This document shows, one piece after another, positions 17,514 to 39,840 of a DNA stretch of 50,147 nt. Every line of letters begins with the position of its first letter. Positions within the stretch are counted from its first letter, which is position 1. The notes beneath the pieces were generated by a model, which did no database searches, was not told the origin of the DNA, and was given only the letters and a program-made list of their open reading frames with translations. The DNA comes from Acidocella sp. KAb 2-4 (GTDB lineage Bacteria > Pseudomonadota > Alphaproteobacteria > Acetobacterales > Acetobacteraceae). Position numbers and translations under genes: made by a program. Location of the stretch: the NCBI RefSeq assembly GCF_020567705.1, contig NZ_JAJDJU010000020.1:1-50147 (forward strand), in the 5' to 3' direction.

Positions 17514-17831
17514 TCAGCCCTCGGGAGCGATGCTCACCCGCAACCCGCTCATCTCATCCGTCAGCCGGATCTGACAGGAGAGGCGCGACTGCGCCGTGCG
17601 GTGCTCCGAACTGTCCAGCAAATCGTCCTCGTCCGGGCCGGGCGGGGGCAACTTCGTGGCGAAAGCGGGGTCGATATAGACATGGCAGGTGGCGCAGGAA
17701 CAGCTACCGCCGCAGATCGCCTGCAACTCGTCTTCGCCGCCAGAGCGCAGGGCTTCCATCAGCGACACGCCCGCATGGGCGTTGATCGCCGTGGTCGTCC
17801 CCGCGCGAGTGGTGACCGTGATTTCGAGCAC
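17514..17831 (-). CDS. [2Fe-2S] ferredoxin (adrenodoxin/putidaredoxin type)
   Basis: 105 residues from a GTG start at 17831 with AAGGAG nine bases upstream. The longer reading runs through the transporter gene in another frame and is wrong. The cluster ligands are Cys40, Cys46 and Cys49 (C-x5-C-x2-C in [13 protein letters not shown]) plus Cys86 in RLSCQI, the ISC/adrenodoxin spacing. Such ferredoxins pass electrons to oxygenases. As last gene of the catabolic strand it is the only visible electron donor for the Rieske oxygenase at 27-28.4 kb. No ferredoxin reductase gene is in the window. Confidence 0.9.
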
Positions 17832-17868
17832 TTGGATAGTCTCCTTCAATAAATGCACCACTGATAAG

Positions 17869-20346
17869 TTAAGCCAGCTCTTCGCGGCGCTGCGCCGCCG
17901 GGTCCGTCTGCGCCGCTGGCGCGGTGGCGCTGGGCCGGGCGGCAACCGCCGCCGCAGGCTGGAAACTGCCCCGTGGCAGCAGGAAATACGCCAGGGACGG
18001 CAGGAGGATGAGAGCGCCGAGCATGTTGAGCACGAACATGAAGGCAAGCAACAGGCCCATATCCGCCTGGAATTTGATGGGGGCGAGGACCCAGGTGACG
18101 ACACCGACGGCCAGGGTGAAGCCGGTGAGCAGCACCACCTTGCCGGTAAACAGCAAGGTGCGGTGATAGGCATCAGACAGCGAGGCCCCCGCGCGCAGCT
18201 GCTTGAGCGTGATGCTGAGCACGTAGAGCGCGTAATCGACGCCGATGCCGACGCCAAGCGCGATCACCGGCAGCGTCGCCACCTTGATGCCGATGCCGAG
18301 CATGACCATCAGCGCCTGTGCCAGAATGGAGGTGAGCACCAGCGGCAGCACCGCGCACAGCACCGCGCGCCAGGAGCGGAAGGCGATATAGCAGAAGATG
18401 ATCACCGTGGCGTAGACCAGATACAGCATCTGGTTATTTGCCTGCTCGATGACGATGTTGGTCGCCGCCTCGATGCCCGCATTGCCGCCGGCGAGCGAGA
18501 TCTTGAAGGTCGGCGCCTGGTTGCGCGGGTCCGCCGCGAAGTTCTGCACCGCGTTGACCACCGCCTTCAGCGTCGCCGCCTTGTGGTCGGTGAGCGAGAC
18601 GTAAACGGGGTCGAAGGTGCAGGAGAAATTCTCCAGCGAGGTCGGCACATAAGGGGCGAGATCGTCAATCGCTTGCTGGTTGCGGATGATCGCATACCAT
18701 TTCGGCGCGTTCTCGGTCATCAGCATCGTCGCCATCTGGCTGAATGACGCGATCGACGAGGTGGATTGCACCTGCGGCATCTGGTTCAGCCGCCATTCCA
18801 GATCATCCAGCACCGAGATCGTCTTGAAGGTGTTGCACTGATAGGGCTGGGTATCGACCAGCACGACCATGGTGTCGCTGCCATTGGTGTAGTGGTGGAC
18901 GATATAGGCATTGTCCTGGTTATACTGCGAGCTCTGGCGTAGCTCCGGGGCGCCCTGGGTGAGATCGCCCACCTGCACGCGGCTGCCGACCACCCAGCCT
19001 GCGCCGCCCAGCCCGACCGCGACCATGATGGCCAGGGCGGCGTAACGGCGTTGGGTGAACAGGTCGAGAAAATCCCATAGCGGATGCGGAACGCGCCCGC
19101 CCGCCTCGTCAACCTCATAGCGCAGGCTGCGCAGCGCCGCCTTGCGGCTGACGCCGGTATAGCTGAGCAGCATCGGCAGCATGATCAGGTTGGTGAAGAT
19201 CAGGATGGCGACGCCGATGCTGGCGATCAGGGCGAGTTCACGGATGGCGTCGATGCGGATCGTCATCAGCACCGCGAAGCTGGCGGCATCACAGGTGAGG
19301 GCCGCCAGACCGGCGAGGAACAGGCGGCGGAAGGTATAGCGCGCGGCCACCAGCGGATGCATGCCCCGGCCGATATCCTGCATCACGCCGTTCATCTTCT
19401 GCGCGCCATGGCTCATGCCGATGGCGAAGATCAGGAACGGCACCAGCACCGAATACGGGTTGAGGTCGAAGCCGAGCAGCGGCAGCATGCCCATCTGCCA
19501 GGTGACGGCGACGATCGAGGCGATCACCACCAGCGCCGTGCTGCGCACGCAGCGCGTGTACCAGAACAGGATGCCAGTCGCGATCAGCACGGCGGCGCCG
19601 AAGAAGATCAGCACGTCGCCGATGGCGTTGATCATGTCGCCGACCACCATCGCGAAACCGACGATGTGCAGCGTCACCCCCTGCTGGGCATAACGCGCGC
19701 GGATATCATTGAGCCTGCGGGCGAGCGCGCCGTAATCGAGCGGCGTGCCGGCGGCGTCCTGCGTGCTCATCAGCGGCACGTAGATCATGCTTGATTTGTA
19801 ATCGCTACCGACGAGCTCGCCGACCTTCCCGGTTTTGGCGATGTTCTGGCGCACGATGTCGAGCTGTGCGGGGCTGCCGTCATAGGTGGAGTCGATGACC
19901 GGCCCGCCCTCCAGCCCGTCCGGCGTCACCGCGAGCCAGCGGGTCGAGGGCGTCCAGAGCGAGGTCATGTAAGAGCGGTCGACACCCGGCAGCAGGAAAA
20001 TTTCGTCATTCAGCTTTTGCAGCACCGCCAGATAATGCGCGTTGATGATGCTGCCCTGGTTGGCCTCCACCACGATGCGGATGGCATTGCCCTGGCTTTG
20101 CAGATCCTCATAATGGTTGAGGAAGTTGACGATGAAGGGCTGGTGCGTCGGGATCATCTTCTCAAAGCTGGCATTGAGGCGCGTATGCGTCGCCTGCCAG
20201 CTGAAGAAGATGGTCGCGATCAGGCAAAGCGTCAGCACGACCAGACGGTTGTTGAACAGCAGGCGCTCAACCACCGTGCCTGATTGCCGGTCGAAATCGG
20301 CCAGATCGGCAATCACCGGCGCCTGATCGTCAATATTCATAGCCAC
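17869..20346 (-). CDS. RND-superfamily MMPL-type transporter
   Basis: 825 residues. There are two similar halves, each with one N-terminal helix, a large periplasmic domain and a block of about five helices (first block around residues 225-385, second around 650-790). That is the 12-helix plan of the MMPL/COG1033 exporters, which move lipids and other hydrophobic molecules using the proton gradient. The GTG at 20346 is chosen because GGAG lies eight bases upstream. It sits between a YCF48-type protein and the ferredoxin at the end of the catabolic cluster, so transport of the hydrophobic substrate is inferred. Direction is unknown. Confidence 0.87.
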
Positions 20347-20361
20347 GCTTGAGTCTCCATC

Positions 20362-21462
20362 TCAGTTCTGGCTGAACGTCGCCGCGGGTACGCGGATGAC
20401 GCCACGATTGCCCACCACGATGACATCGCCATCGGTCGCCTGCGCCGCGCCGAACAACTCCATCGGCAGGGCCAGGGATAAACGCTTGAAACTATGGGCA
20501 TGGTCGGTGGACAGAAACAGGCCGCCATCCTCGCCCGTGACCAGGATCGCGCCCGACGCCAATATTGTCGCCGCGGTGAGGTTGCCGCTCGCGCCCAGGG
20601 CTACCGGCTGCCAGGTGCTGCCGCCATCGTCGCTGCGATAAGCCTGACCGGCGACGCCAAAGGCGAACACGCCGCCATCGCCGGTCGCCACGGCGCCGAG
20701 CAACGTGGCCGCGTTCGGCTTGGTTGCGGCGGCAAAATCATCACCCGTATCGCTAGACCGGAACACCAGCCCGCCCTCGCCAACAATGTAAAGATTTTGT
20801 CCGACGGGCGTGATGTCATAGAGGTTATGGCTGAACGGGTCATCGACATGCAGACTCCAATCAGCCCATGTCTTGCCACCATCCGTGGTCTTCATTGTCA
20901 TCCGGTAGGCGCCGCAGATGATCGCCTCGTTGGGATCGGGCGCCCATATCGATAAAAATGGCTTGTCGGGGCCTGCCTGCATGAAGATATTTGCGCGCAT
21001 GAGCGCGTGCTGCGCCGGGGGCGATTGATCGCCCTGCGCGACCGCCGCTTTCGCCGCCGCCATGGTCAACTTGTTCGCCTCAATCCCATCCAGCTGCAAT
21101 TGCCATGTCGCGCCCGCGTCGTCCGTATGCAGGATCACGCCATAATGCCCGACCGCCCACCCCTCGGTGGCATTGGCGAAGGCTACGGCGGTGAGCGTCA
21201 CCGTCACCGGCACGCTCGCCTGCTTCCAGCTGACGCCATTATCATCCGAGTAGGTGATGACACCATGTTCACCCACCGCGACGAGCCGGTTGCCAACCCG
21301 CGTGATCGCAATCAGCACAACCTTATCCGGCGCCTTCACCACAATCGACGCCTCATCCAACGCGCGAATCCTCGTATCCGCAAAGGCGGGCGTGAGCATC
21401 GTGGCGCACAGGCAAGATGCGGCCAGTATTCTGATCCTCGTTTTCCAGGCCGCAAACGCCAT
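20362..21462 (-). CDS. YCF48/BNR-type secreted beta-propeller
   Basis: 366 residues starting at the ATG at 21462 (a TTG at 21468 is an alternative). A signal peptide ends near TPAFA. The rest carries repeated Asp-boxes of the S/T-x-D-x-G-x-T/S-W type: SDDNGVSW, TDDAGATW, TTDGGKTW and SDDGGSTW, giving a six- or seven-bladed propeller. In plants and cyanobacteria YCF48 helps assemble photosystem II. In non-photosynthetic bacteria relatives occur next to RND transporters and DUF1329/DUF1302 genes, as here, so a periplasmic role in that envelope system is likely. Confidence 0.82.
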   Translation of the reverse strand: MAFAAWKTRIRILAASCLCATMLTPAFADTRIRALDEASIVVKAPDKVVLIAITRVGNRLVAVGEHGVITYSDDNGVSWKQASVPVTVTLTAVAFANATEGWAVGHYGVILHTDDAGATWQLQLDGIEANKLTMAAAKAAVAQGDQSPPAQHALMRANIFMQAGPDKPFLSIWAPDPNEAIICGAYRMTMKTTDGGKTWADWSLHVDDPFSHNLYDITPVGQNLYIVGEGGLVFRSSDTGDDFAAATKPNAATLLGAVATGDGGVFAFGVAGQAYRSDDGGSTWQPVALGASGNLTAATILASGAILVTGEDGGLFLSTDHAHSFKRLSLALPMELFGAAQATDGDVIVVGNRGVIRVPAATFSQN

Positions 21463-21543
21463 GCTCAAGATATCCTCAATTTCAGGCTTCCTCGTTTTGC
21501 AACTGAACGAGGCGCAAGGCCCCGTTCAGCGCGCTGCCGGCCG

Positions 21544-22941
21544 TCAGAACTGTGCCTGCGCGGCCAGTGATTCGGCGTTGAACTTGTTAGGAGAAGGCAA
21601 GTTCGTGTAGTCCGGCGGCGTATTATACGGCGCATCCCCCCATGGCCCGCCTGACGTCACATATTCATTCTTCAGCAGATCGTACACAACGTCATTGCTG
21701 AACACCGTGCCGGGCAGATCAGGACGGTCCAGCGTAAAAAGTTGTTCGGTCTTCCACAGCTGTCCATGCGAGTCGTATTCATCGGCGAGGGTGGCGTCCC
21801 ACGTATCCTCGTCCACATAAAACACGCGCTTGGCAATCACGTTACGCTCACCCGGATGCAGCGTCGCCTCGACAACCCAAACGCGATGCAGTTCCCAACG
21901 AACCAGGTTTGGATTGAGGAAATGCGGCCCATGGGCCTGCGTCGTCGTCGCCAGAAACAGCTTGTTGTTGTTATAGGGGATATACATCTCCTTCTTACCG
22001 ATGAGCTTCCAGTCATATTTATCCAACGCACCGTTGAAGACATAGAACTCATCGTAATTGTCGATGTCATCTGTTTGCGTCGCCGGCGTGTCGTAGAACA
22101 ACTCCGGCGCCTTGCGCACACGCCCCTGGCCGGTCAGCAACTGCCATGCCTGGGTCGGGGTCTTCAGCGGATCAGATGACAGCCACTGGATGATTTTTTC
22201 GCCGTTGATGCTGGGCGGCGATGTGAATTCATAAAGATCGCGCTCGATGAGCCCCGCGCCAGATGGATCTTTCGCCTCGTAATAGGGCTCGTCATGCGTG
22301 TAATGCGAGCCGGCTGAGAGCGTCATCGTGCCATTGCTCACGACGATCACACCGATATTCTCCACCACCGACACGCCTTGCCACCGCGCCTCGTGATTCC
22401 ACATGATCTCGGCACCTGCCTGGCTCGGGTCAGCATCAGGAATCGGAAATGGAACACCGCCATAAGCGCCCGAGAAGCCCATGCGCGCGCCTGCCGGATC
22501 CGGCTGGGCGTTGAGCGCGTTGCGATAAATATTGTCATACACCCATTGCGGCGCGGCGGCGGTGCGGTGGGTGGGATACACGGTGATGCTGTAGCCATAT
22601 TGCTTCATCATCTGCATCACGCCAGGGGTTAGCCGGTCTTTATACTGATCCATATTGCTGGCATTGATGGTGACAATTGGTTTGTCACTCGCGAACAGAT
22701 CCGGCATCGGCTGATCCGGCGTCCACCCAGCCGGCGGCGTGGTCAAGCCACCCGTCCAGGCGGGGATCAGGCCATCCGCACTCCCCGCACGCTCGGCGCC
22801 CATCGGCGTCAGCGTTGTCTTCAGCAACGCGGCCTGATCGGCCGTCACCGCCGCTAGCGCGGCATGCGCACCGAAGGCGAAAATGCAGCCCACCAGCGTC
22901 GACCGGAATTTTTTCAGATTACGTTTCATCTTATGTTTCAT
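21544..22941 (-). CDS. DUF1329 periplasmic or outer-membrane-associated protein
   Basis: 465 residues with a signal peptide ending near AALAA, followed by the DUF1329 opening in which a gene product recognises LTPMGAERAGSADGLIPAWTGGL. Other family phrases are YGVPFPIP-like AYGGVPFPIPD and YVDEDTWDATLADEYDSHGQLWK. The fold resembles lipoprotein-binding proteins of the LolA/LolB class in published structure predictions of the family, but no activity is established. Eleven bases separate it from the DUF1302 gene, so the two are one unit. The start could also be the ATG four codons later. Confidence 0.87.
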   Translation of the reverse strand: MKHKMKRNLKKFRSTLVGCIFAFGAHAALAAVTADQAALLKTTLTPMGAERAGSADGLIPAWTGGLTTPPAGWTPDQPMPDLFASDKPIVTINASNMDQYKDRLTPGVMQMMKQYGYSITVYPTHRTAAAPQWVYDNIYRNALNAQPDPAGARMGFSGAYGGVPFPIPDADPSQAGAEIMWNHEARWQGVSVVENIGVIVVSNGTMTLSAGSHYTHDEPYYEAKDPSGAGLIERDLYEFTSPPSINGEKIIQWLSSDPLKTPTQAWQLLTGQGRVRKAPELFYDTPATQTDDIDNYDEFYVFNGALDKYDWKLIGKKEMYIPYNNNKLFLATTTQAHGPHFLNPNLVRWELHRVWVVEATLHPGERNVIAKRVFYVDEDTWDATLADEYDSHGQLWKTEQLFTLDRPDLPGTVFSNDVVYDLLKNEYVTSGGPWGDAPYNTPPDYTNLPSPNKFNAESLAAQAQF

Positions 22942-22952
22942 GCCTTTCCGAT

Positions 22953-24641
22953 TTAGAAAGTATGCTGGATGTTGAACGAGAGATAGCCACGATCGGCTAG
23001 CGGATTGAGGATCGGATCGGGCCGCCCGAGATAGGTGTTGTAGGTCAGGCCCGCGATCCAGGTCGTGCGATACGTCGCCGTCACCCCGAAGCTAACGGAC
23101 CCGGTGCCGTGATTCATGTTCAGATCGACCTGCGAACGGCCGAAGAGATTGTAGGTCAGGCCGATCGGGAATTGCAGCTCAAGATTCGGCAGCACATCGT
23201 AATAGGCCGGCGTCGCCACAATCTCGAACGCGCCAGCGGACGGGCTCCGGCCCGGCTCCAAATCGTTCCTCCCCGAGTCAACCGAGACGACATGGTTCAT
23301 CGCGAATTCACCGATGATCGTCATCCCGCCAGGATCGAGCGGCAGTGGCGGCGTGATGTAAATGCCCGAAACCTGCGCAGCGACCGTGCTGCCCACCGGA
23401 TACAACGCACCAGCATTGCCGCTGCCAGGATAGGCCGTATTGGCGACACCCGGCGGCGGAAACGGATTCTGCACCAGCGGCATGTTCTTGCGGCCAGAGA
23501 TTTCCCCGGCGACGTTGACAGGACCAACCGTTGTCGAGAGCGATGCACCAAACATTTGAATATCGCGCGGATAAACCAGCCAGTATTTGCCGATATTGCC
23601 CACACCGTTTGAAGTGACGTCGGTATAGACTTCCGGTGATTTTGAGTCGAACCGCAACGCATACAACCCAAGATCGTAATTACCGAGCGAGGCCATGGCC
23701 GCAGCGCCAAACTGACCATTCGCGTTCGAGGGCGTCAGGTCCCGGGTGCGCGTGACGTACACGCCCGGGAAGAATGGATTGGGCGCGGCGAAAAACAGGC
23801 GCTGACCGCCCTTATCGAAGAAGTCGATATTGCTGAAATACGCACCACTGCCCTGGAAGAAATCCTGCCGCCACTCGAACTGGTAATAGGCCTGAAAGGT
23901 CAGAATCTGGTTCGGCTGATAGGTGACAACAGCCTGGCCAACCGGCATGAAAATCTGCTGGGCCTGGGCATTGGGCACACTTTCGGCGGTGAGAATATTG
24001 ATCGGCGCCTGCCCGGCAGCGATGCCATTATTGGCGAAGAACAGGCTCTGCCCCCAGATCAGCGTCTGTCGGCCGACCTTTACCGTGAGCTCTTGCCCGT
24101 TATTGGCGCCAAAATTAAACGACCCATAGGCGAACGCATCGAGAAGCTGAGCATTTTCTCCATTCACGTTGCGCGTTGCACTGGTGAAATCGTTGTTCTT
24201 CGCAATCGATAGCGCGTTGTTCGTATAAGGCGAGCCGTTCTGATTCGTGCCGAGATAAGGCGTATTCAGATAAACCTGTCCGCTCACATGCATGCCATAA
24301 TTCCCATCCTTGACATCGAGGACGGGCAACACGCTGAGCTCATTGGCGACAATGCCATGCTGAAAATTCTGGTCGCCATCATTGTAATTCAACGCCCGCG
24401 GCGAGTCCAGCAGAATCTTCGACGGATCATTAACACGATAAAACGCCGAGTACTCAACGGTCGTATCAAGATTGATCTCCAGATTGCCTGCGGAATAAAG
24501 ATTCAACGCATGCGCGCTGTGCCATTGCGCCATGGCAAGGGCGCTCGATGTGGCCGCAAGCACCGCCATGAAGCGCGTCTTCGTGGCATGTTTGCCACGG
24601 CCACCAAGAGGTAATGTTTGTTTTTTGGCGTTCCTGGTCAT
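22953..24641 (-). CDS. DUF1302 outer-membrane beta-barrel protein
   Basis: 562 residues. A long signal region ends near SAHA, followed by LNLYSAGNLEINLDTTVEYSA, the DUF1302 opening, and alternating hydrophobic strands to a terminal phenylalanine (LSFNIQHTF), the outer-membrane barrel signature. Phrases such as VKVGRQTLIWGQSLFF are typical of the family. DUF1302 genes are commonly found with DUF1329 in gene clusters for degrading steroids and other hydrophobic compounds, and a channel for such substrates is the working idea. It is the first gene of the envelope module, with GGGAG before its ATG. Confidence 0.87.
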   Translation of the reverse strand: MTRNAKKQTLPLGGRGKHATKTRFMAVLAATSSALAMAQWHSAHALNLYSAGNLEINLDTTVEYSAFYRVNDPSKILLDSPRALNYNDGDQNFQHGIVANELSVLPVLDVKDGNYGMHVSGQVYLNTPYLGTNQNGSPYTNNALSIAKNNDFTSATRNVNGENAQLLDAFAYGSFNFGANNGQELTVKVGRQTLIWGQSLFFANNGIAAGQAPINILTAESVPNAQAQQIFMPVGQAVVTYQPNQILTFQAYYQFEWRQDFFQGSGAYFSNIDFFDKGGQRLFFAAPNPFFPGVYVTRTRDLTPSNANGQFGAAAMASLGNYDLGLYALRFDSKSPEVYTDVTSNGVGNIGKYWLVYPRDIQMFGASLSTTVGPVNVAGEISGRKNMPLVQNPFPPPGVANTAYPGSGNAGALYPVGSTVAAQVSGIYITPPLPLDPGGMTIIGEFAMNHVVSVDSGRNDLEPGRSPSAGAFEIVATPAYYDVLPNLELQFPIGLTYNLFGRSQVDLNMNHGTGSVSFGVTATYRTTWIAGLTYNTYLGRPDPILNPLADRGYLSFNIQHTF

Positions 24642-24835: not shown

Positions 24836-25762
24836 TCAGACCGGCGCCGGGGTCCACAGCCCTGTATCCGGCGTATTGAACTGCGCCGGAATCATGCCGT
24901 CAGTGATCAACCCGCCTGTGCCCCATTGGTCTTGCATCTCTGGCTTGGTTTCCCAGCGGCGGACTTTCCAGTTCGCCTCGTCGACCCCCTCCATCTCGGC
25001 AGTAAATTCGCAGACGTTGCCCGCAGGGTCCTTGAAATAGCTGAACGTGTTGTCGCCCGCGCCATGGCGGCCTGGCCCCCAGACGATCTTCTGTCCCGCG
25101 CGCACCAAGCGCCCCGTCGCGCGCATCTGTGAATCGATACCGCCCATGTCATAAGCAACATGGTTGAGGGCGACGTGCGGCCCCTTGGCGATGGCCAGAA
25201 TATGATGCTTCGCCCCGTTGCAACGCAGGAAGCACATGAAATCTTCCAGCCAATCGGTCAGCTTCAGGCCGAGATGGGTTTCATAGAAGCTCTTGGTCGC
25301 CTCCAGCGTCAGCGTGTTGAACACGACATGGCCGAGATTGACCGGCACGCCGCGCTGCGTGGCGCCAGAAATCTTGCGCGGCGCCACATCGGCGGAAACT
25401 TCGATCAGGCGCCCTTCGCAGTCGAAAAACCGCAGACCATAACCACCGCCCGGCGTGCCGAGATCAGCCGGCGCGCGATCGATCCGCACACCCGCCGCAG
25501 ACAAGCGCTGGCCAAGCGCATCCACCTCAGCACGCGACGCCGCAGCGAGCCCGACCACATCGAGCCGCTTCGCCTCCGCCTTGCGCAAACGCAGGATATA
25601 TTGCGCGGGATCAACCGGCGAACCAAGATAGGCGACGCCATCGCCGGCCGAGACCTGCTCAAGCCCCCAAAGCGTCGTATAAAATTCCAGGCTTTCATCG
25701 AAATTCGGCATTGCAAGAGCAATATAGCGAAGCCCGGTGATTGGGCTTTGTGCTGTAGTCAT
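24836..25762 (-). CDS. Extradiol ring-cleavage dioxygenase (type I, VOC fold), copy 1
   Basis: 308 residues from the ATG at 25762, which has GAGGAG upstream; the 43-residue extension is rejected. Two VOC domains are present. The second keeps the iron ligands His145 (LGHVVF), His201 (LNHVAYD) and Glu252 (NVCEF), and the motif WGPGRHGAGDNTFSYFKDP typical of 2,3-dihydroxybiphenyl-type dioxygenases. These enzymes open catechol rings next to the two hydroxyls (meta cleavage) with O2. It would act after the Rieske dioxygenase and the dihydrodiol dehydrogenase encoded upstream. Confidence 0.88.
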   Translation of the reverse strand: MTTAQSPITGLRYIALAMPNFDESLEFYTTLWGLEQVSAGDGVAYLGSPVDPAQYILRLRKAEAKRLDVVGLAAASRAEVDALGQRLSAAGVRIDRAPADLGTPGGGYGLRFFDCEGRLIEVSADVAPRKISGATQRGVPVNLGHVVFNTLTLEATKSFYETHLGLKLTDWLEDFMCFLRCNGAKHHILAIAKGPHVALNHVAYDMGGIDSQMRATGRLVRAGQKIVWGPGRHGAGDNTFSYFKDPAGNVCEFTAEMEGVDEANWKVRRWETKPEMQDQWGTGGLITDGMIPAQFNTPDTGLWTPAPV

Positions 25763-25780
25763 CAGGACACTCCTCAAATC

Positions 25781-25834
25781 GCCGGTATTCCGGCACCGTG
25801 TATTGCCGAAAATACTGCGGGCACATCCCCCGCA
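25781..25834 (-). promoter_or_regulatory. Two small hairpins in the leader of extradiol dioxygenase 1
   Basis: GCCGG-TATT-CCGGC (25781-25794) and TGCGGG/CCCGCA (25816-25834) lie in the 150-base gap before this gene. The farther one is followed on the minus strand by GTATTTTC, a weak T-rich tail. They may lower read-through or stabilise the downstream mRNA. No gene is seen in the gap. Confidence 0.3.
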
Positions 25835-25912
25835 ATTCAAACATTTTTTGGTGATGGATAAGATCGATCTGAATGATGGAGCCAAAGGCATGGCCTCCGG
25901 CCGAATGATCGA

Positions 25913-26449: not shown

Positions 26450-26477
26450 GTTCTGCCTTTCGATGTCCGGCTTCAGG

Positions 26478-26990
26478 TTAAAGGAAGACGCCGAGATTGG
26501 GCGTGTGCAGCACCGTCTCGGCAATCAATGCACGGCGCCTGAGCAGTTTAGAGCCAGCCTCCGTCAAGCGAAGCTGATCAAGACGGCGAACCGGGATCAC
26601 GTCTCCGGGCATATCCGTACCGCGCTGGCGATAAAGCAGCATCGCGCTTTCCACCTCAATGATATCAGGTTGCCCTGACTGATTAACAATTAGGCTGCCG
26701 ATCACGCGCAGCGTGCGCGACGGCGGACTCTCCGACCAGCAATAGCCAGAGTTGAAGCGGTCGACGCGGATCTTGATCAGCGCCTTGTTGTCGAGAATCC
26801 GAAATGCCCCCTCGGGTACCTCATCAGCAAAGGCAAGACGCACCTCGCGGTTTGGCACTTCGTAGATGATCTCGTCATCCAGCAACTCGAACCATTCCTC
26901 AAAACGCCGCTCATCGAGCAGCTTCGCTTCGCGTGAGAGAAAGTTCTGCGCGGTGAAGAAAAGTGTGGCCTGATCTAGCATGTTCGTCAT
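26478..26990 (-). CDS. Rieske aromatic-ring dioxygenase, beta subunit
   Basis: 170 residues from the ATG at 26990, which best suits the GAGGGGGAG ribosome-binding site. An ATG two codons earlier is possible. The SnoaL/NTF2-like fold is recognisable from FLSREAKLLDERRFEEWFELLDDEIIYEVP and the C-terminal LRVIGSLIV and YRQRGTD segments of the ring-hydroxylating beta family. The subunit is structural in the alpha3-beta3 enzyme. It follows the alpha gene after 13 bases, as in bph and related operons. Confidence 0.9.
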   Translation of the reverse strand: MTNMLDQATLFFTAQNFLSREAKLLDERRFEEWFELLDDEIIYEVPNREVRLAFADEVPEGAFRILDNKALIKIRVDRFNSGYCWSESPPSRTLRVIGSLIVNQSGQPDIIEVESAMLLYRQRGTDMPGDVIPVRRLDQLRLTEAGSKLLRRRALIAETVLHTPNLGVFL

Positions 26991-27003
26991 ATCCATCTCC
27001 CCC

Positions 27004-28359
27004 TCATGTGCTTTCACGCATGTCTTTGAGCCAACGGCGCCAGAAGGCTTCCTGCATGTACTCGCCATAAATGCTGTTGAAGAACTTCCCCGGCCCTTTC
27101 CAGTTCGGGTCCGGCTCCACCCGCACCTGCTGATAATTCAGCTGCAATTTTTCCTTACGGCTCCAAGGGCTTGACCCGACCTTGGCGATCCCTTCCCACA
27201 CGGCCGTATCATCCTGCTCAAAAATACCGCCCGAGCCAAAACCAAACTGACCCGCGATGTAGGAGCGTTTGGTATATTCCTCCGGCATGAATTTGTAATC
27301 GACGATCCAGTTCCACAGCTCCATCACGCCCGGCGCCACCGGCTGCCACAGACGGATGCTGGTGAAAGCCAGCGGGAACTCACCCGGCTGGGCTGGCTGC
27401 GGGAAACGCAGATAGCTCATATTCGGGAAGATCGTGCTGATTGTGGGCGGCACGTTGGTGATCATGTCGATTTGCGTCTCGTCAAGATGCGACAAATCAA
27501 ACTGCGCACGGATCTCGGGGGGATAGCCCCATAATTCGAATGGCGGCCCAAACCAAGAGCGCAACGCATGGCCAATGAAGCCGTGTCCGTTTTCAAACAT
27601 ATAGCCGCGCGCATTCGGGCCGGTTTCGCGGACGTCGCCCGGTATGAATTTCGACGCCGTCGCCGAATAATGCGCGGTGCCGACATGGTACGCATCACCG
27701 CAGAAATTCTCCGCGCCACTCTTCCAGTCCGCACGAACGATGAAGCGCTCCGGCGCCGCCAAAACCCGCACACCATCCGGATGCAAGCCGAAGATCGCAT
27801 CGAACATCCAGGCCGCGCCGCCAAGATATTCGCGCAGGCCGGGTCCTTCATCCGACAGGCATGTGAAGATCAACCCGTGGATGGTGTCCACGCGCGGCGC
27901 CTTCAGCAGCCCCCATTTCTTGGCATCGAGCCTGCCGCCATAGGCTTGCCGCATGTCCGGTGCACCAACAAAATCGCCATTATTCTTGTATATCCAGCCA
28001 TGGTAGGGGCAGCGGAAATGCGTGGCATTGCCCTTGTCCTCGTGGCAAACCTCGGTGCCGCGGTGGCGACAATGATTGAGGAGCACATTGATTTCACCCT
28101 TCGACCCGCGGGTGACAATGACTTGATCCAGCCCGACCTTGCGCAGCATGAAATCGCCGGAATTCGGGATCTCGCTCTCATGCCCCACAAACACCCAGGT
28201 GCGGGTGAAGATGCGCTCCATCTCGGCGCGGAACACCTTTTCGTCGTTGAAAACGTCAACCGGTAGCAATCCCTGATTGAGTCCCTCCTCAACGCGATCA
28301 TAGAGAGCGTTCAGGTATTTTTTTTCGTCGCCGGGGACGACGGAATTGTATTTATACAT
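27004..28359 (-). CDS. Rieske aromatic-ring dioxygenase, alpha subunit
   Basis: 451 residues. The Rieske [2Fe-2S] ligands are Cys97-x-His99 and Cys117-x2-His120 (NHCRHRG and CPYHGW). The mononuclear iron ligands are His225 and His230 after bridging Asp222 (GDAYHVGTAH), with the third ligand expected in EQDD at 381-384. It adds both atoms of O2 to an aromatic ring to form a cis-dihydrodiol. The sequence belongs to the broad biphenyl/PAH/phthalate-type alpha group. Substrate is not predictable. AAGGGGG precedes the ATG. Confidence 0.94.
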   Translation of the reverse strand: MYKYNSVVPGDEKKYLNALYDRVEEGLNQGLLPVDVFNDEKVFRAEMERIFTRTWVFVGHESEIPNSGDFMLRKVGLDQVIVTRGSKGEINVLLNHCRHRGTEVCHEDKGNATHFRCPYHGWIYKNNGDFVGAPDMRQAYGGRLDAKKWGLLKAPRVDTIHGLIFTCLSDEGPGLREYLGGAAWMFDAIFGLHPDGVRVLAAPERFIVRADWKSGAENFCGDAYHVGTAHYSATASKFIPGDVRETGPNARGYMFENGHGFIGHALRSWFGPPFELWGYPPEIRAQFDLSHLDETQIDMITNVPPTISTIFPNMSYLRFPQPAQPGEFPLAFTSIRLWQPVAPGVMELWNWIVDYKFMPEEYTKRSYIAGQFGFGSGGIFEQDDTAVWEGIAKVGSSPWSRKEKLQLNYQQVRVEPDPNWKGPGKFFNSIYGEYMQEAFWRRWLKDMREST

Positions 28360-28360
28360 T

Positions 28361-29185
28361 TCAACCCCCTTTATTCGGCAGTTCCGCGCTTAGCAGGGCG
28401 CGGTTCAACAAGCCTTGATCCACCACAATGGTCTGCCCCGTCACCAGTTTATTCTGGCGCGAGGCCAGAAACGCATAGAGAAACCCATGGTCCTCCGGCG
28501 TTGGCAGTTCCTGCAACAGACTAATCGAGCGGAATTTCGCCAGGAACGCATCCTTGGGAATATCCGATTGCTTCTGCGCCTGCATCCCCAGCGCCGCGGG
28601 GCCGCGCAGCTGGCTGTTGGCGATGCCCGCCGGCGCGATGCCATTGACGCGAATTGCTGGCGCGAACTCAAACGCCAGCTGATGGACGATGCTGCGAATG
28701 GCCCCCTTGGTCGCGCTGTACATCACACCGCCGCCATCGGCGGCATAGGCGGCGGTGGAACTGGTGAGCACAATGGCGCCCTCAGCGGCGAGCAGCATGT
28801 CGTAAAACACACGTGCGGCGAGGACATGCCCTTTGACGTTCACATGGAACAGCTCGTCGAACAGCCCGTCGATCCGCTCCAGCGGCACATCGGCAAGACG
28901 GATATTGCCATCGAAAATACCCTGCACGCCAATCAGCGCATCGAGCCGCCCGAAGCGCGCCGCCACTGCCGCGCGGCAACGTTCCAGCTCCTCCACCCGG
29001 GTGCAACTCCCCTCGACCAGCAACACCTGATCGCCAAATTCCGCGCGCAAGGCGGCGAGCTTCTCACCCGAAATGTCCATCACTGCGAGCTGCGCGCCTT
29101 CGGCCAGACAGTGCCGCGCCACACCAAGACCAAGCCCGGAACCGCCCCCCGTGATGAGGACGCTGTGATTTTCCAATAGCCGCAT
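28361..29185 (-). CDS. Short-chain dehydrogenase, cis-dihydrodiol dehydrogenase type
   Basis: 274 residues with the NAD loop TGGGSGLG (12-19), the catalytic Asn in HVNVKG, Ser142/143 and Tyr156-x3-Lys160. The C-terminal region with SQLRGPAALGM matches the substrate-loop pattern of BphB-type dihydrodiol dehydrogenases, which re-aromatise the dihydrodiol to a catechol. The usual NAG motif after strand 4 reads VQG instead. It lies directly upstream of the Rieske alpha gene (1 base gap), as expected for the next enzyme in the pathway. Confidence 0.88.
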   Translation of the reverse strand: MRLLENHSVLITGGGSGLGLGVARHCLAEGAQLAVMDISGEKLAALRAEFGDQVLLVEGSCTRVEELERCRAAVAARFGRLDALIGVQGIFDGNIRLADVPLERIDGLFDELFHVNVKGHVLAARVFYDMLLAAEGAIVLTSSTAAYAADGGGVMYSATKGAIRSIVHQLAFEFAPAIRVNGIAPAGIANSQLRGPAALGMQAQKQSDIPKDAFLAKFRSISLLQELPTPEDHGFLYAFLASRQNKLVTGQTIVVDQGLLNRALLSAELPNKGG

Positions 29186-29187
29186 GG

Positions 29188-30318
29188 CTAGATATCCTCC
29201 GTCAAGGCGCGGAAGGACTCGACCATCAGCGCCGCATGCTCGGCCTTGCTGCCGCCCTGCACCTCTATCTCACCCAGCCGGCCGGAATTATGCACGACCA
29301 TGCGGCAACGCTCCCAACGCCGCTGCTCGAAAGCCTTGAGCGCCGCGGCGAGATCCGCACCGCGCGCCAGCTCCTCAGCCAACACAATGGCATCCTCCAC
29401 GCCGATGCCCGCGCCAGCGGCGAGATGCGGCGTGGTCGCATGCACGGCGTCGCCAATCAGCACGACGCGGCCCGCATGCCAGGGCAGGGGCATCAGCATC
29501 CCTTCCAGCGGCCGGAACAGAATCTGCGAGGCTTCCGAGAGTTGCGCGCGAAACGCCTGCACTTCGGGCGCCGGGAATGGTTCCAGCAACCCCTTCAATA
29601 GCGGTACGAAATGCTCCTCGGGAATCCGCTCATTCACCGGACGGTTCTCGTTAACGAACAAATACATCTCGGTGCGCGACACCGGATTCACGCCAACCTT
29701 TGTTTCCGGCCCGACCCACAGGATCGTCTTGTCGATGCCCGCCAGCCGCGGCAACACCGCGCGCCACACGCCCTGGCCGCTATAGCGCGGCTGGGGGCCG
29801 CCAGGAAACACCGCCTCCCGCAGCTTGGAGCGCAGCCCATCTGCGCCGATCACCAGATCATAGCGCCTTGTTTCGCCATCGGTGAAGGCAACATCGACAT
29901 GATCAGCCGTTGGCGCAATCTCCGTGAACGTGCAACCAAGGCGCACGGATGTACCCGCCTCCAGCGCAGCGTCGCCGAGAATCTTCGCCAACACCGGGCG
30001 CATCACGGCGCCATTGCCCGGAACGTCCGCCCCCGCCACCCGCGGCGTCGGGATCTCGGCAATCATCTGGCCGGATGACGTGCGGATCTCGGTGCCATCA
30101 CTGGCATGGCCTTCTTCCAGAAAGCGCGGCAGGATGCCGAGCGTGCGGAAGGCGCGCAATGACGGCCCACCAATGCTGATGCCCGCGCCATAGGTCGTCC
30201 ACCCGGGCGTGATCTCCACCAAATCAACCTGCACGCCCTGGCGGCGCAGCATGATCGCCGCTGACAAGCCCGAGAACCCGCCGCCGACGATCAAAACCTT
30301 GGACAATAAACCGGCCAT
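29188..30318 (-). CDS. FAD-dependent aromatic monooxygenase, copy 1
   Basis: 376 residues. The FAD dinucleotide loop GGGFSGLSAA opens the protein, the DG motif is VIGADGLRSKLR and the second FAD motif is LIGDAVHATTPHLAAGAGIGVEDA. These are the three marks of the salicylate/hydroxybenzoate-type flavin hydroxylases, which use NAD(P)H and O2 to hydroxylate an activated ring. It ends three bases before the dehydrogenase gene. It is clearly a paralogue of the enzyme at 33.9-35.0 kb. GGGGGGA precedes the ATG. Confidence 0.88.
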   Translation of the reverse strand: MAGLLSKVLIVGGGFSGLSAAIMLRRQGVQVDLVEITPGWTTYGAGISIGGPSLRAFRTLGILPRFLEEGHASDGTEIRTSSGQMIAEIPTPRVAGADVPGNGAVMRPVLAKILGDAALEAGTSVRLGCTFTEIAPTADHVDVAFTDGETRRYDLVIGADGLRSKLREAVFPGGPQPRYSGQGVWRAVLPRLAGIDKTILWVGPETKVGVNPVSRTEMYLFVNENRPVNERIPEEHFVPLLKGLLEPFPAPEVQAFRAQLSEASQILFRPLEGMLMPLPWHAGRVVLIGDAVHATTPHLAAGAGIGVEDAIVLAEELARGADLAAALKAFEQRRWERCRMVVHNSGRLGEIEVQGGSKAEHAALMVESFRALTEDI

Positions 30319-30359
30319 ATTATTTCCCCCCCACGCGCGCCGACGATGCTAGGCGCCGC

Positions 30360-31826
30360 TCATAGCGGCGCGATCCCGTCCCAGCACATGTATTTAACCT
30401 CAAGGAACTCATCGATGCCGATATGCGAACCCTCGCGGCCAAGACCGCTCTGCTTCACACCGCCAAACGGCGCCACCTCGTTGGAAATCAGCCCCGTATT
30501 GATGCCGACCATGCCCGATTCCAGCCCCTCCGCGGCGTTCCAGATGCGCGCGGCGTCGCGGCTGAACAGATAGGCGGCCAGACCAAATTCGGTCGCGTTC
30601 GCCAATTCCAGCGCCTCGGCATCGGTCTTGAAGCGGAACAGCGGCGCCACCGGACCGAACGTCTCCTCATGCGCCAAAAGTGCATCGCCCGGCACATCCG
30701 CCAGCACGGTCGGTTCAAAGAAGCAGCCGCCCAGATCGTGCCGCTTGCCGCCTACCAGCACCTTCGCGCCCTTCGCTACGGCGTCGGCGATGTGGCTCTC
30801 GACCTTTTCGATCGCGCCCATATCGATCAGCGGCCCCTGTTGCACGCCCTCGCTCAGCCCGTTGCCAACCTTGAGTTGCCCCACGCGCGCCGCCAGCTTG
30901 TCGGCAAACGCGTCGAACACGCCATCCTGCACCAGCACGCGGTTGGCGCTGATGCAGGCCTGCCCGGTATTGCGGTATTTGGAGGCGACCACGCCCTCGA
31001 CCGCCGCGTCCAGATCGGCGTCGTCGAAGATGATGAACGGCGCATTGCCGCCCAATTCCATAGAACATTTCTTGATCGTCGCGGCGGATTGCGCGAGCAG
31101 CACGCGCCCCACCTCGGTCGAGCCGGTGAAGGTCACCTTGCGCACCAATTGATGCGCGGTCAGGCGACCGCCAATGGCGCGGGTGTCGTTGCCCGTGATC
31201 ACGCTGAACACCCCCGCCGGCACGCCCGCGCGCTCGGCCAGTTCCGCCAGCGCCAGCGCGGTCATCGGCGTCTGGCTGGCGGGCTTCACCACCATCGCGC
31301 ACCCGGCCGCAAGCGCGGGCCCGGCCTTGCGGGTGATCATCGCCGCGGGAAAATTCCAGGGCGTGATCGCCGCACACACGCCAATCGGCTGCTTGAGTAC
31401 GACAATGCGCTGGCGCGGGCTCTTGGCTGGCAGCACCTCGCCATTCACGCGCTTCGCTTCCTCGCTGAACCATTCCAGGAAGGAGGCGGCATAATCCACC
31501 TCGCCCCGCGCCTCGGTCAGCGGCTTGCCTTCCTCCAGCGTGATGATCTTCGCCAGATCCTCACGATGTTCCAGCGTCAACTCATACCACCGGCGGATCA
31601 CCTTGGCCCGGTGCTGGGCCGTGGTCTTCCGCCAGTCGAGAAACGCCCGGTGCGCGGCCTCGATGGCGCGATCAGTCTCCGTCTCTTTGCAGCGCGGCAG
31701 ATCAATCAGCGCCTCACCCGTGGCCGGATTGCGCAAAGTATAGATGCCATGCGGCGTTTCGGCGACCCACTGGCCATCAATATATGCGCCACAGCGCCAG
31801 AGGGATTTATCGGTCAGAATTTCCAT
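30360..31826 (-). CDS. NAD(P)-dependent aldehyde dehydrogenase, succinate-semialdehyde type
   Basis: 488 residues of the ALDH superfamily. The NAD site GSTEVGRVL, the catalytic Glu in MELGGNAPFIIF and catalytic Cys in NTGQACISANR are intact. Overall it matches GabD-like succinate semialdehyde dehydrogenases, which send 4-carbon semialdehydes into the citric acid cycle as succinate. In this cluster it may oxidise the aldehyde released by the DapA-family lyase. GAGGA lies nine bases before the ATG. Confidence 0.88.
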   Translation of the reverse strand: MEILTDKSLWRCGAYIDGQWVAETPHGIYTLRNPATGEALIDLPRCKETETDRAIEAAHRAFLDWRKTTAQHRAKVIRRWYELTLEHREDLAKIITLEEGKPLTEARGEVDYAASFLEWFSEEAKRVNGEVLPAKSPRQRIVVLKQPIGVCAAITPWNFPAAMITRKAGPALAAGCAMVVKPASQTPMTALALAELAERAGVPAGVFSVITGNDTRAIGGRLTAHQLVRKVTFTGSTEVGRVLLAQSAATIKKCSMELGGNAPFIIFDDADLDAAVEGVVASKYRNTGQACISANRVLVQDGVFDAFADKLAARVGQLKVGNGLSEGVQQGPLIDMGAIEKVESHIADAVAKGAKVLVGGKRHDLGGCFFEPTVLADVPGDALLAHEETFGPVAPLFRFKTDAEALELANATEFGLAAYLFSRDAARIWNAAEGLESGMVGINTGLISNEVAPFGGVKQSGLGREGSHIGIDEFLEVKYMCWDGIAPL

Positions 31827-31836
31827 TTTGCAATCC

Positions 31837-32856
31837 TCAGCAGGGGAAGCGGCCGATCATGAACTGGCTGTCCGGATCATCCGTGACGAAGCAGCCCGAC
31901 GCGGCGAGCCCCGCGCGCAGCGACTTCATGAACCGGTCAGGGATGCGCGGTGTCGGGCTGCGCAGCGGGCCGCCATTGAAGCCCGCAAGCCAGTCCTGAT
32001 ACTTCCAGTTGGTGCGGTTGATGAAATTGGTGCCCGGAATATACGCCTGAGTCGCCGCGCTGGAGGCCTGACGCGCCGGATGCACGCGCCAATATTCCTT
32101 CATCGCCTCTTCCCACTTGCCGGTGCGGGCGAGATCAAAAGCCTTGGGGAAGTAGTCACCCATCCATTGCGTATAGCTGGTGCCGGAGAACTGAAACTGC
32201 ATCATGCTCATCAGCGGAATGCAATCACCCTCGATCGGGCAGCTGATGATCGTGCGGTCGCGGAAATGATGATACATCTCGCACAGTCCGGCGACGAGCG
32301 GAAAGCCCTGCTCGGATTTCACCGCCACCACATTCGGGCAATCATTGAGCAATCGCCCGATCAATTCCACCGACATGCCGGCCGGGTGGATGCGCTCAAA
32401 CCCCCAGAGCGGAATCGGGAACAGCATCACCGCCAAATTCGTGGCGTCACAAAACGCCTTGGTATAGTCGTAGATTTCCTTTTCCGTCGTCGGCCAGAAC
32501 TGCGACGGATAAGACAGCAGCACAATGTCAGCTCCCGCCTTCTCCGCCAGCTTCGCCGCCTGGATATTTTCCTCCAGCGTGCTGAAACCGGCATGGAAAA
32601 ACAGCCCGAGTTTGCTCCCGGCAGTGTCGCGCGCCAGGGCTGTGAACTCCGCATTCTCCTCCGGCGAGATCACAACATCGGTGCATAGCAGCGTATAGGT
32701 GAAGCCCAGTTCGATCAGGCGCTGGATGTCGTGGCGGATCCCCTTTTCATTCAGCCGTTTGAGATCGGCGCTGAAACTGGGGATCGTGACGCCCGAACAC
32801 CCGATGAGGTGCTCGCGGGCCCAGGCGCGGGCATCGGAACGGAAATAAGCAGGCAT
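31837..32856 (-). CDS. DapA-family class I lyase/aldolase
   Basis: 339 residues from the ATG at 32856. The GTG at 32865 falls inside the AGGAG ribosome-binding site and is rejected. The (beta/alpha)8 fold of the dihydrodipicolinate synthase family is recognisable, with the Schiff-base lysine in NVVAVKSEQG. The DHDPS YYNxP motif is replaced by LLSYPSQFWPT, so it is not a lysine-biosynthesis enzyme. Relatives in aromatic pathways are hydratase-aldolases that split an unsaturated 2-oxo acid into pyruvate and an aldehyde. That role is inferred from the neighbours. Confidence 0.82.
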   Translation of the reverse strand: MPAYFRSDARAWAREHLIGCSGVTIPSFSADLKRLNEKGIRHDIQRLIELGFTYTLLCTDVVISPEENAEFTALARDTAGSKLGLFFHAGFSTLEENIQAAKLAEKAGADIVLLSYPSQFWPTTEKEIYDYTKAFCDATNLAVMLFPIPLWGFERIHPAGMSVELIGRLLNDCPNVVAVKSEQGFPLVAGLCEMYHHFRDRTIISCPIEGDCIPLMSMMQFQFSGTSYTQWMGDYFPKAFDLARTGKWEEAMKEYWRVHPARQASSAATQAYIPGTNFINRTNWKYQDWLAGFNGGPLRSPTPRIPDRFMKSLRAGLAASGCFVTDDPDSQFMIGRFPC

Positions 32857-32867
32857 GGCGGCCACTC

Positions 32868-33881: not shown

Positions 33882-33905
33882 AAAATCGTCATCCTTTCCA
33901 ATCGC

Positions 33906-35024: not shown

Positions 35025-35046
35025 CGTTTCCACCATTCGGGTTATC

Positions 35047-35871: not shown

Positions 35872-35876
35872 TGCCG

Positions 35877-36320
35877 TTACTTCTCCCCGTTGGCGCGACG
35901 CCATGCCAATTGCGCTATCCGGGCCTCTGGCGTGCGATCTTCCAACCGCGCCTCGATGAACAATGCATCGCGCCCCTCAAGCCGTATACGCCGGCGCTGC
36001 TCACCGCCTTTCCAATTGGGAAACAGGCTGGTTTGTACCTCATGTACCACGGCATCACCCTCCACCCGGTAACGCCCCGCATAAGCCAGCATCGAGCTGT
36101 AAGCCGCGGCCTTCTCCGCCTCGCTGGCATTCCATTGGCCGCCCGTTTCAAAATTCTTCCGGTCCGCATTAGCGATCATGCAAATCATGTCGCCCTCTGG
36201 TGTGTAACGGATGAAGCCCTCGAGCCGCTCGCCCAGCGGGGCCTGCCGGCGGCCGTCGTCATAAAGTTGGAGCCAGGAGATAATGTCCCACCGGCCAATG
36301 AGGTCAGACGGATTGATCAT
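35877..36320 (-). CDS. Lipocalin-like domain protein
   Basis: 147 residues that match the lipocalin-like family 5 pattern: LIGRWDIISW at the start, GFIRYTPEGDMICMIAN, YAGRYRVEGDAVVHEVQTSLFPNW and QRRRIRLEG. No signal peptide is present, so it is probably cytoplasmic. Such proteins could bind a hydrophobic ligand or act as small isomerases. It overlaps the preceding hydrolase gene by four bases, so it is made together with the two hydrolases. Confidence 0.8.
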   Translation of the reverse strand: MINPSDLIGRWDIISWLQLYDDGRRQAPLGERLEGFIRYTPEGDMICMIANADRKNFETGGQWNASEAEKAAAYSSMLAYAGRYRVEGDAVVHEVQTSLFPNWKGGEQRRRIRLEGRDALFIEARLEDRTPEARIAQLAWRRANGEK

Positions 36321-38187: not shown

Positions 38188-38249
38188 TATTATTCCTTTT
38201 CCGTTTCCAATGGCGCAGCCTTCCGCCACGCCCTGCCGCTCAACAGAAA

Positions 38250-38912: not shown

Positions 38913-38940
38913 GCGCCAAGACTTACTTGCCCCGATTTTT

Positions 38941-38984: not shown

Positions 38985-39032
38985 TTGTGCGGGTGCGAAT
39001 GCGGCCCGCGCCATCAAATTTCGAGGAAACAC

Positions 39033-39809: not shown

Positions 39810-39840
39810 GCCGCCCGCCCCGGCGGCGCTGTCAATTTCG

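What the first reader, a model, noticed from the sequence alone, without database searches (positions are those of the whole stretch)
17514..24641. Four-part envelope module (DUF1302, DUF1329, YCF48-type propeller, RND/MMPL pump) welded to an aromatic-degradation operon
Seen: an outer-membrane barrel, a secreted DUF1329 protein, a secreted Asp-box propeller and a 12-helix RND pump lie in one direction with small gaps, followed by the oxygenase's ferredoxin. Known: DUF1302 and DUF1329 recur near degradation genes for hydrophobic compounds, yet none has an established biochemical role. Inference: together they form a trans-envelope conduit that moves a hydrophobic substrate or toxic intermediate. 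The co-occurrence of all four as one unit is the most likely undescribed system here.
Basis: partly seen in the sequence, partly recalled or inferred. Interest (0 to 1): 0.72.

Follow-up and report, generated by a model that had tools for sequence, protein, structure and literature searches.

The report
AmeABCD-type hydrophobe transporter in degradation operon
The four neighbouring genes really are one conserved unit, but the unit is already in print as a four-part transporter for oily compounds, so this is a new example of an obscure known system; the data collected here suggest how its parts are linked and that one pump may serve several outer-membrane parts.

Summary
On the minus strand, 24641 to 17514, lie DUF1302 (A), DUF1329 (B), a YCF48-type propeller (C), an MMPL/RND protein (D) and a ferredoxin, behind a ring-hydroxylating-dioxygenase operon. 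The four form a real unit: this genome holds four complete cassettes, and in 200 genomes of the phylum C and D lie within 5 kb in 40 of 42 cases (0.33 expected).

It is not undescribed. Families and order equal AmeABCD of Castellaniella defragrans (2018), whose deletion was tested; Delftia Cs1-4 has A, B and C at consecutive loci.

What the calls add: DUF1329 has a LolA fold. Co-evolution over 73 cassettes orders the parts A-B-D-C, against gene adjacency and in line with a published co-fold. Seven distant genomes carry B beside an RND gene, six of them with A, and no propeller was found there. The pump lineage has Ser-His in TM4 and Asp-Tyr in TM10, the reverse of this genome's HpnN. Some genomes hold many A-B pairs for one C-D pair, suggesting a shared motor.

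Direction and substrate are unproven; outward is the published reading, inward is not excluded. AmeD itself could not be fetched.

The parts
22953..24641 (-). DUF1302 protein (AmeA type), predicted outer-membrane barrel, 562 aa, C-terminal Phe
   Evidence: PF06980 E 6.5e-100; F562 at least 90% conserved in 52 rows; barrel not modelled here
21544..22941 (-). DUF1329 protein (AmeB type), secreted LolA-fold protein, 465 aa
   Evidence: PF07044 E 2.8e-111; model pLDDT 91.1; best PDB matches LolA3 9tp6 (TMt 0.82) and DUF1329 4z48; LolA_like in 43 of 53 rows at E up to 0.01
20362..21468 (-). YCF48-type secreted beta-propeller (AmeC type), 368 aa
   Evidence: PF14870 E 1.7e-21; solved Ycf48-like 5ojp E 2.3e-14
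17869..20346 (-). MMPL/RND pump (AmeD type), 825 aa
   Evidence: PF03176 4e-15; TIGR00921 HAE3 6.3e-36, below its cut-off; HpnN 5khn E 1.1e-7
19408..19413 (-). codons of the TM4 pair Ser312-His313 of the pump
   Evidence: 116 of 117 rows, the other row masked there; invariant in 29 rows
18232..18237 (-). codons of the TM10 pair Asp704-Tyr705 of the pump
   Evidence: 117 of 117 rows, but DY was part of a scan pattern for 80 of them; invariant in the 29 rows found without a pattern
17514..17831 (-). 2Fe-2S ferredoxin, probable electron carrier of the dioxygenase
   Evidence: PF00111 7.6e-9; only ferredoxin among the 20 proteins scanned
24836..25891 (-). extradiol dioxygenase, gene directly upstream of the cassette
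   Evidence: PF00903 6.6e-21, TIGR03211 3.2e-28 below cut-off
26478..28359 (-). ring-hydroxylating dioxygenase beta (26478-27068) and alpha (27004-28359) subunits, HcaF/HcaE-like
   Evidence: PF00866 3.1e-26, PF00355 1e-17; NF042946 2.6e-66 below cut-off
28361..38912 (-). rest of the catabolic gene row: dihydrodiol-dehydrogenase-like SDR, two FAD monooxygenases, aldehyde dehydrogenase, DHDPS-family, OCD-family, two alpha/beta hydrolases, second extradiol-like protein, GntR regulator

Best explanation
The four genes encode a tetrapartite transporter of the AmeABCD kind. The RND pump (D) sits in the inner membrane, held by the propeller (C); the LolA-fold protein DUF1329 (B) docks on the pump and hands the hydrophobic cargo to the DUF1302 outer-membrane protein (A). 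The physical order is A-B-D-C, with A-B-D as the core and C as an addition. The cargo is the hydrophobic substrate, or a lipophilic intermediate, of the oxygenase operon in which it lies. Shown here: the families, the conserved unit, the LolA fold, the co-evolution order, the conserved TM4/TM10 residues. Inferred: docking, cargo, direction. Outward movement is my first choice (about 0.55) because the published assays and the known HAE3/MmpL pumps point that way; inward movement about 0.35. The confidence below is for the transporter, whichever way it works.
For: Same four families and order as AmeABCD, whose deletion lowers growth on unfunctionalised monoterpenes and slightly raises Nile Red accumulation. 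Four complete cassettes in this genome. All four strong in 22 of 200 genomes. B at E up to 1e-10 in 30 genomes: 23 have a strong D, and in the other 7 an MMPL gene lies beside B. 70 of 80 related loci carry A-B-C-D in a row. The DUF1329 model is a LolA fold. Partial correlations of distance over 73 cassettes: A-B 0.40, B-D 0.50, C-D 0.41 against A-C 0.16, A-D 0.22, B-C 0.18; chain on top in 920 of 1000 bootstraps and 66 of 100 equal-length draws, kept on thinning to 20 cassettes. B and D are not neighbours while B and C are, so linkage does not explain it. A published co-fold of four P. putida proteins gives the same contacts, two weak and one strong.
Against: No transport was measured. AmeD itself could not be fetched, so kinship is by family and order. 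D scores below the curated HAE3 cut-off (123.7 against 351.9 bits). The published Nile Red difference was small, was seen only with CCCP, and real-time efflux was alike in mutant and wild type. Partial correlations measure shared rates as well as contact, and with equal lengths the gap narrows (C-D 0.34 against 0.22-0.24). Five of 80 related loci with upstream sequence lack A, B or both. Strong A stands without strong B, C or D in 4 genomes; in the two of these that I checked, no MMPL match lies on A's contig.
Confidence: 0.75

Rival explanations
1. Same machine, but an importer: A takes the hydrophobic growth substrate from outside, B ferries it, and D moves it into the inner membrane, as NPC2 hands sterol to NPC1. 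(This overlaps with the best explanation, which leaves direction open.)
For: Growth on the hydrophobic compound is lost while growth on acetate or perillyl alcohol is kept, and acetate rescues growth with limonene; P. putida DUF1302/DUF1329 proteins are needed to use Tween 20; a YCF48 mutant is impaired on phenanthrene but not pyruvate; the D profile matches NPC1-related chains weakly, E 6e-6. The NPC2-to-NPC1 precedent is recalled.
Against: The ameABCD mutant also grew less with acetate above 5 mM limonene and accumulated more Nile Red under CCCP; characterised bacterial HAE3/MmpL pumps move lipids outward (for HpnN, otherwise recalled).
Confidence: 0.35
2. The proteins shape the outer membrane (vesicles or nanopods) and do not carry cargo themselves.
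For: The Delftia phnL (YCF48) mutant made far fewer vesicles and nanopods; DUF1302 and DUF1329 are listed among nanopod proteins.
Against: It does not explain why an RND pump and a LolA-fold protein accompany the unit; the vesicle loss may be secondary.
Confidence: 0.08
3. The four genes are only neighbours, carried together on mobile catabolic islands.
For: The operon has lower G+C than most of its flanks; cassettes occur on plasmids.
Against: Co-occurrence and spacing far beyond chance, four copies in one genome, kept together in reshuffled order at 23-25% identity of D on two plasmids.
Confidence: 0.03

Closest known systems
AmeABCD of Castellaniella defragrans 65Phen (PMC6394551; text parts 1-3 of 5 read)
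   Same: DUF1302, DUF1329/LolA superfamily, COG4447 (photosystem II assembly-factor group), HAE3-type RND; same order; inside a catabolic island
   Different: Monoterpene island, not a ring-hydroxylating-dioxygenase operon; sequences not compared here
phn cluster of Delftia acidovorans Cs1-4 (passages of PMC3110197, PMC3958437, PMC4572682)
   Same: DUF1302 (DelCs14_1756), DUF1329 (_1757) and phnL/YCF48 (Delcs14_1758) have consecutive numbers; phnL lies in the phenanthrene gene cluster
   Different: No RND gene was named in the passages seen; interpreted as vesicle/nanopod formation. PMC13101534 cites a DUF1329 gene DelCs14_1722 for this strain's mutant, a number not found in PMC3958437, which names phnL
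P. putida PP_0765/PP_0766 with PP_2018/PP_2019 (PMC10866462, section 12 read)
   Same: DUF1302, DUF1329, a periplasmic protein and a 'multidrug efflux transporter'; co-fold contacts A-B and B-D weak, D-C strong
   Different: Encoded at two places; needed for Tween 20; the families of PP_2018 and PP_2019 are not named there
'Nanopod' cluster of benzene degrader ORM2a (PMC13101534, one section and passages)
   Same: Porin-like protein, DUF1329, YCF48, MMPL; proposed benzene transport, direction open
   Different: A universal-stress and a hypothetical gene inside; anaerobic; DUF1302 is not named
DUF1302-DUF1329 pair of Zoogloea oleivorans Buc (PMC7012976, one passage)
   Same: Pair beside a ring-hydroxylating dioxygenase alpha subunit, a ferredoxin and catechol 2,3-dioxygenase
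   Different: No propeller or RND gene in the figure legend seen
HpnN hopanoid transporter (5khn, 6wu0)
   Same: Nearest solved HAE3-type pump by single-sequence search
   Different: In this genome's HpnN the acid is in TM4 instead of TM10; per PMC6394551 HpnN works without partners

Membership tests
AmeABCD-type tetrapartite transporter | DUF1302, DUF1329, COG4447/YCF48 and RND genes together in the order A-B-C-D | tested here: met
AmeABCD-type tetrapartite transporter | AmeB-like protein belongs to the LolA superfamily | tested here: met
AmeABCD-type tetrapartite transporter | Pump falls in the AmeD branch of a tree with AmeD itself | not tested
AmeABCD-type tetrapartite transporter | Loss lowers growth on or tolerance to apolar compounds | not testable with these tools
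   needs a mutant
HAE3 RND transporters (TIGR00921) | Score above the curated cut-off 351.9 bits | tested here: not met
   123.7 bits, E 6.3e-36: related, but outside the strict model; filed as AmeD-like MMPL/RND
HAE1 tripartite efflux pump | Membrane-fusion protein and TolC-type outer-membrane factor | tested here: not met
   neither family among the Pfam matches of the four cassette proteins
Ycf48 photosystem II assembly factor (PRK13684) | Score above the equivalog cut-off 326 bits | tested here: not met
   80.4 bits: same propeller family, other function
HpnN hopanoid transporter (TIGR03480) | Score above the cut-off 751.85 bits | tested here: not met
   48.8 bits; the genome has its own HpnN at 882.8 bits

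The most novel reading that the evidence does not exclude
The system is hub and spoke. Interchangeable DUF1302-DUF1329 pairs, each for one kind of hydrophobic compound, plug through the LolA-fold DUF1329 into a shared propeller-RND motor whose relay acid sits in TM10 instead of TM4; the propeller is a later addition to an older A-B-D core; and the machine imports growth substrates in the manner of NPC2 and NPC1.
Probability: 0.25. Interest if true: 0.75.

Novelty: new member of a known kind. Interest (0 to 1): 0.4.

Why it matters
DUF1302 and DUF1329 carry names that say nothing about function. Tying them to one machine with a stated order of contacts, a LolA-fold carrier and two marked pump residues makes an open question testable: how Gram-negative degraders move water-insoluble compounds across the envelope, and in which direction. 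If the pump is shared between many outer-membrane pairs, single-cassette knock-outs can be masked or pleiotropic, which would matter for strain design in bioremediation.

Tried and rejected
Rejected: chance adjacency; a photosystem role for the propeller (cut-off not met); HAE1-type efflux (no fusion protein or TolC-type factor); Tat export of DUF1329 as a general trait (a loose motif rings in 2 of 69 B, 6 of 69 C and 4 of 69 A proteins, and some open frames begin too early). No promoter-like site lies in the 194-bp gap before DUF1302; over 17-31 kb the scan found 5 such sites against 4.4 in shuffles, and 18 terminator-like sites against 11.7 (sd 3.2), one of them in that gap but facing the other strand. 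Rfam gave only the tRNA.

Led nowhere: direct comparison with AmeD; a model of the DUF1302 barrel (not completed); the second structural aligner (not installed); the phn-island paper PMC3318190 (not held). Searches of solved structures gave nothing useful for DUF1302 and nothing for DUF1329 with a single sequence.

Rows dropped before the counts: 30 of 96 DUF1302 rows (weaker than 4.8e-25), 7 of 98 DUF1329 rows and 3 of 46 RND rows (weaker than 1e-50), 19 of 61 propeller rows (second piece of a split match). The 7 dropped DUF1329 rows are in 7 genomes taken up again; the weak DUF1302 rows outside those were not followed. Of the 79 flanking frames five were left out (L053 upstream, L063 both, L070 downstream, L127 upstream) and one added (L053:13357-14130), giving 75.
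Full report
What is there. Reading the minus strand from 24641 to 17514, the window encodes DUF1302 (562 aa), DUF1329 (465 aa), a YCF48-type propeller (368 aa), an MMPL/RND pump (825 aa) and a 2Fe-2S ferredoxin (105 aa). Gaps are 11, 75, 15 and 37 bp. Upstream lies a catabolic gene row ending in ring-hydroxylating dioxygenase alpha and beta subunits, a VOC protein and an extradiol dioxygenase, 194 bp before DUF1302. The ferredoxin after the pump is the only ferredoxin among the 20 proteins scanned, so the cassette sits between the oxygenase and its likely electron carrier. I call the four proteins A, B, C and D.

Is it a unit? The window's own genome (3.1 Mb, 71 contigs) has four matches to A and four to B at E up to 0.001, and four to C and four to D at the stricter limits used there, arranged as four complete A-B-C-D cassettes. 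A second one (contig 45) also follows an extradiol dioxygenase in a ring-hydroxylating-dioxygenase operon; the other two lie near SDR-type and other oxidoreductase genes. In 200 genomes drawn from the phylum, the window's own included, strong matches occur in 27 (A), 23 (B), 22 (C) and 23 (D) genomes, all four in 22; strong A stands alone in 4. The one D genome without a strong C shows a weak C beside D. C and D lie within 5 kb in 40 of 42 cases (0.33 expected) and A and B in 60 of 66 (1.0 of 61 expected). These genomes are related to one another, so the counts are not independent events.

Weaker matches. At the looser limits A occurs in 56, B in 30, C in 22 and D in 26 of the 200; the three extra D genomes (G157, G161, G165) have none of the others at those limits. 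I took up the 7 genomes with weak B. In all 7 an MMPL gene of 763-780 aa lies next to B, and in 6 of them A lies on its far side, so the order is B-D-A; in G172 no A was found. No propeller match occurs in 6 of the 7; the matches in the seventh (G084) are on another contig, in an open frame of 1858 aa. So a three-part B-D-A system without the propeller exists far from the window's lineage. Propellers too distant for that Pfam model would be missed. In two of the four genomes with strong A alone (G069, G185, both in 360-410 contigs), no MMPL match lies on A's contig; the other two were not checked.

In named genomes, the best 80 relatives of D (of 577 confirmed) show A-B-C-D in one direction in 69 by script and in one more after tblastn (L089). 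Of the other ten, five lie near a contig end (L077, L091, L102, L120, L129, with 0.1 to 1.2 kb held before the first match), so absence cannot be judged, though the 1.2 kb of L129 shows no B; five are variants: C-D alone (L074, L083, and L114 with 3.8 kb of upstream sequence), A-C-D (L100), B with C-D (L119). On plasmids, 7 of 8 regions read carry all four as annotated genes, for example Massilia sp. WG5, between VOC-family/aldehyde dehydrogenase genes and a DHDPS-family gene. In Aromatoleum EbN1 the order is C-D-A-B, in Methylibium PM1 D-B-C-A, with D only 23-25% identical to the window: content survives reshuffling. Comamonas 7D-2 shows only D, near transposase genes. Of 75 flanking frames scanned, the commonest families were SDR (7), MFS (6), LysR (6), AMP-binding (5) and acyl-CoA dehydrogenase (4), so the wider context is lipid and CoA-linked catabolism as much as aromatics (frames were picked by length, so some are wrong, and there was no control set).

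What is in print. Two searches led to AmeABCD of Castellaniella defragrans (PMC6394551; parts 1 to 3 of 5 read): A is DUF1302, B is DUF1329 of the LolA superfamily, C is COG4447, D is a HAE3-type RND pump, in that order. The deletion mutant grew poorly on unfunctionalised monoterpenes, normally on acetate or perillyl alcohol, was rescued by acetate up to 5 mM limonene but not above, and took up slightly more Nile Red under CCCP; efflux in real time was alike. The authors call it an exporter and describe a conserved lineage of such cassettes. In Delftia Cs1-4, DUF1302, DUF1329 and phnL (YCF48) have consecutive locus numbers 1756-1758 (passages); phnL lies in the phenanthrene gene cluster and its mutant was impaired on phenanthrene and in nanopod formation. 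PMC13101534 attributes that work to a DUF1329 gene numbered 1722, a number absent from PMC3958437. Section 12 of PMC10866462 links PP_0765 (DUF1302) and PP_0766 (DUF1329) with PP_2018 and PP_2019 for growth on Tween 20 and proposes a transport system from AlphaFold contacts. PMC13101534 proposes a related cluster for benzene transport. Zoogloea oleivorans has an A-B pair in an aromatic cluster. Other searches. The claim that the system is undescribed is therefore wrong.

How the parts may fit. B: an AlphaFold model of the window protein from a 53-row alignment (pLDDT 91.1) matches LolA3 (9tp6, TM 0.82 by target length, 0.44 by query length), a solved DUF1329 (4z48) and further LolA-family chains; 43 of 53 rows match Pfam LolA_like at E up to 0.01. 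So B has a LolA-type core and is roughly 200 residues longer than the solved chains, signal included. C matches solved Ycf48-like proteins. D matches HpnN, MmpL, Patched and NPC1-related chains but stays below the HAE3 cut-off. A was not modelled.

Co-evolution. Pairwise distances over 73 complete cassettes (69 named loci and the four of this genome) correlate for every pair of proteins, as expected of linked genes (r 0.81-0.91). Partial correlations single out A-B (0.40), B-D (0.50) and C-D (0.41); A-C, A-D and B-C stay at 0.16-0.22. This chain is the top triple in 920 of 1000 bootstraps over cassettes. With 220 columns drawn per protein it is the top triple in 66 of 100 draws and the gap narrows (0.34-0.42 against 0.22-0.24). 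It holds after thinning to 20 divergent cassettes and with ranks. Gene adjacency would favour B-C over B-D; the opposite is seen. The order A-B-D-C agrees with the published contacts for the P. putida proteins, an independent method, and the propeller-free B-D-A loci fit a core of A, B and D with C at the edge. It is not proof of contact.

The pump's relay. Ser312-His313 and Gln316 in TM4 and Asp704-Tyr705 and Tyr708 in TM10 are invariant in 29 pumps found without a pattern; over 117 pumps Ser-His is present in all 116 unmasked rows (Ser was part of one of the two scan patterns, His and Gln of neither, Asp-Tyr of the other). Aligning the two halves of the pump puts Ser-His opposite Asp-Tyr, and MmpL5's Asp-Tyr aligns with the TM10 pair. 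The one HpnN compared, from the same genome, has Asp-Phe in TM4 and Ser-Phe in TM10: the acid is on the other side. That these residues carry protons is inferred from MmpL3, recalled.

A shared motor? In genome G054 at least 6 A and 9 B stand against one C and one D; G082 has 1 A, 6 B, 1 C, 1 D; G070 and G138 1, 3, 1, 1 (at the strong limits; more distant C or D copies would be missed). No genome has strong B without strong D. Together with the separate loci of the P. putida proteins this suggests that several A-B pairs share one C-D motor. The window's genome, with 4 of each, does not need that reading.

Direction. Outward is favoured by the Nile Red and high-limonene results and by known relatives. 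Inward is favoured by loss of growth on poorly soluble substrates with rescue by acetate, and by the need for A and B to use Tween 20. I hold outward at about 0.55 and inward at about 0.35; the rest is vesicle or indirect roles. The substrate of this operon is unknown; the dioxygenase is nearest to, but below the cut-off of, 3-phenylpropionate dioxygenase.

Verdict. A real, correctly read unit; a new member of a known but little-studied kind. The added value lies in the chain A-B-D-C, the propeller-free relatives, the LolA-fold evidence, the TM4/TM10 swap and the copy-number hint of a shared motor.

Noticed in passing
window 20001-40000: G+C is 57-65% over the catabolic gene row against 62-71% in the flanks, with negative GC skew from 24 to 42 kb: possibly an acquired island.
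   Followed up: no
L009 1702-8448 (own genome contig 45): A second ring-hydroxylating-dioxygenase operon of the same genome also ends in an extradiol dioxygenase directly before an A-B-C-D cassette.
   Followed up: partly
   Followed up: partly
window 28361-38280: The gene row holds two similar PRK06847-type FAD monooxygenases, an OCD-family and a DHDPS-family protein and two alpha/beta hydrolases; the pathway and substrate are unclear.
   Followed up: no
genome G032 contig 10, 601885-602802: A propeller match lies in an open frame of 1088 aa, perhaps a fusion.
   Followed up: no
window pump residues Cys504 and Cys576: Two cysteines of the second large loop conserved in 110 and 109 of 117 pumps, a possible disulphide.
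   Followed up: no
L049 8980-11355 (Comamonas 7D-2 plasmid pBHB): A pump gene without annotated partners, near transposase genes (the plasmid gene table is incomplete).
   Followed up: no
L053 7348-8739; L011 10011-11393; L010 8359-9810: Some DUF1329 proteins begin with a twin-arginine-like signal (read from the sequence); a loose count found the motif rare among the 69 named cassettes.
   Followed up: partly
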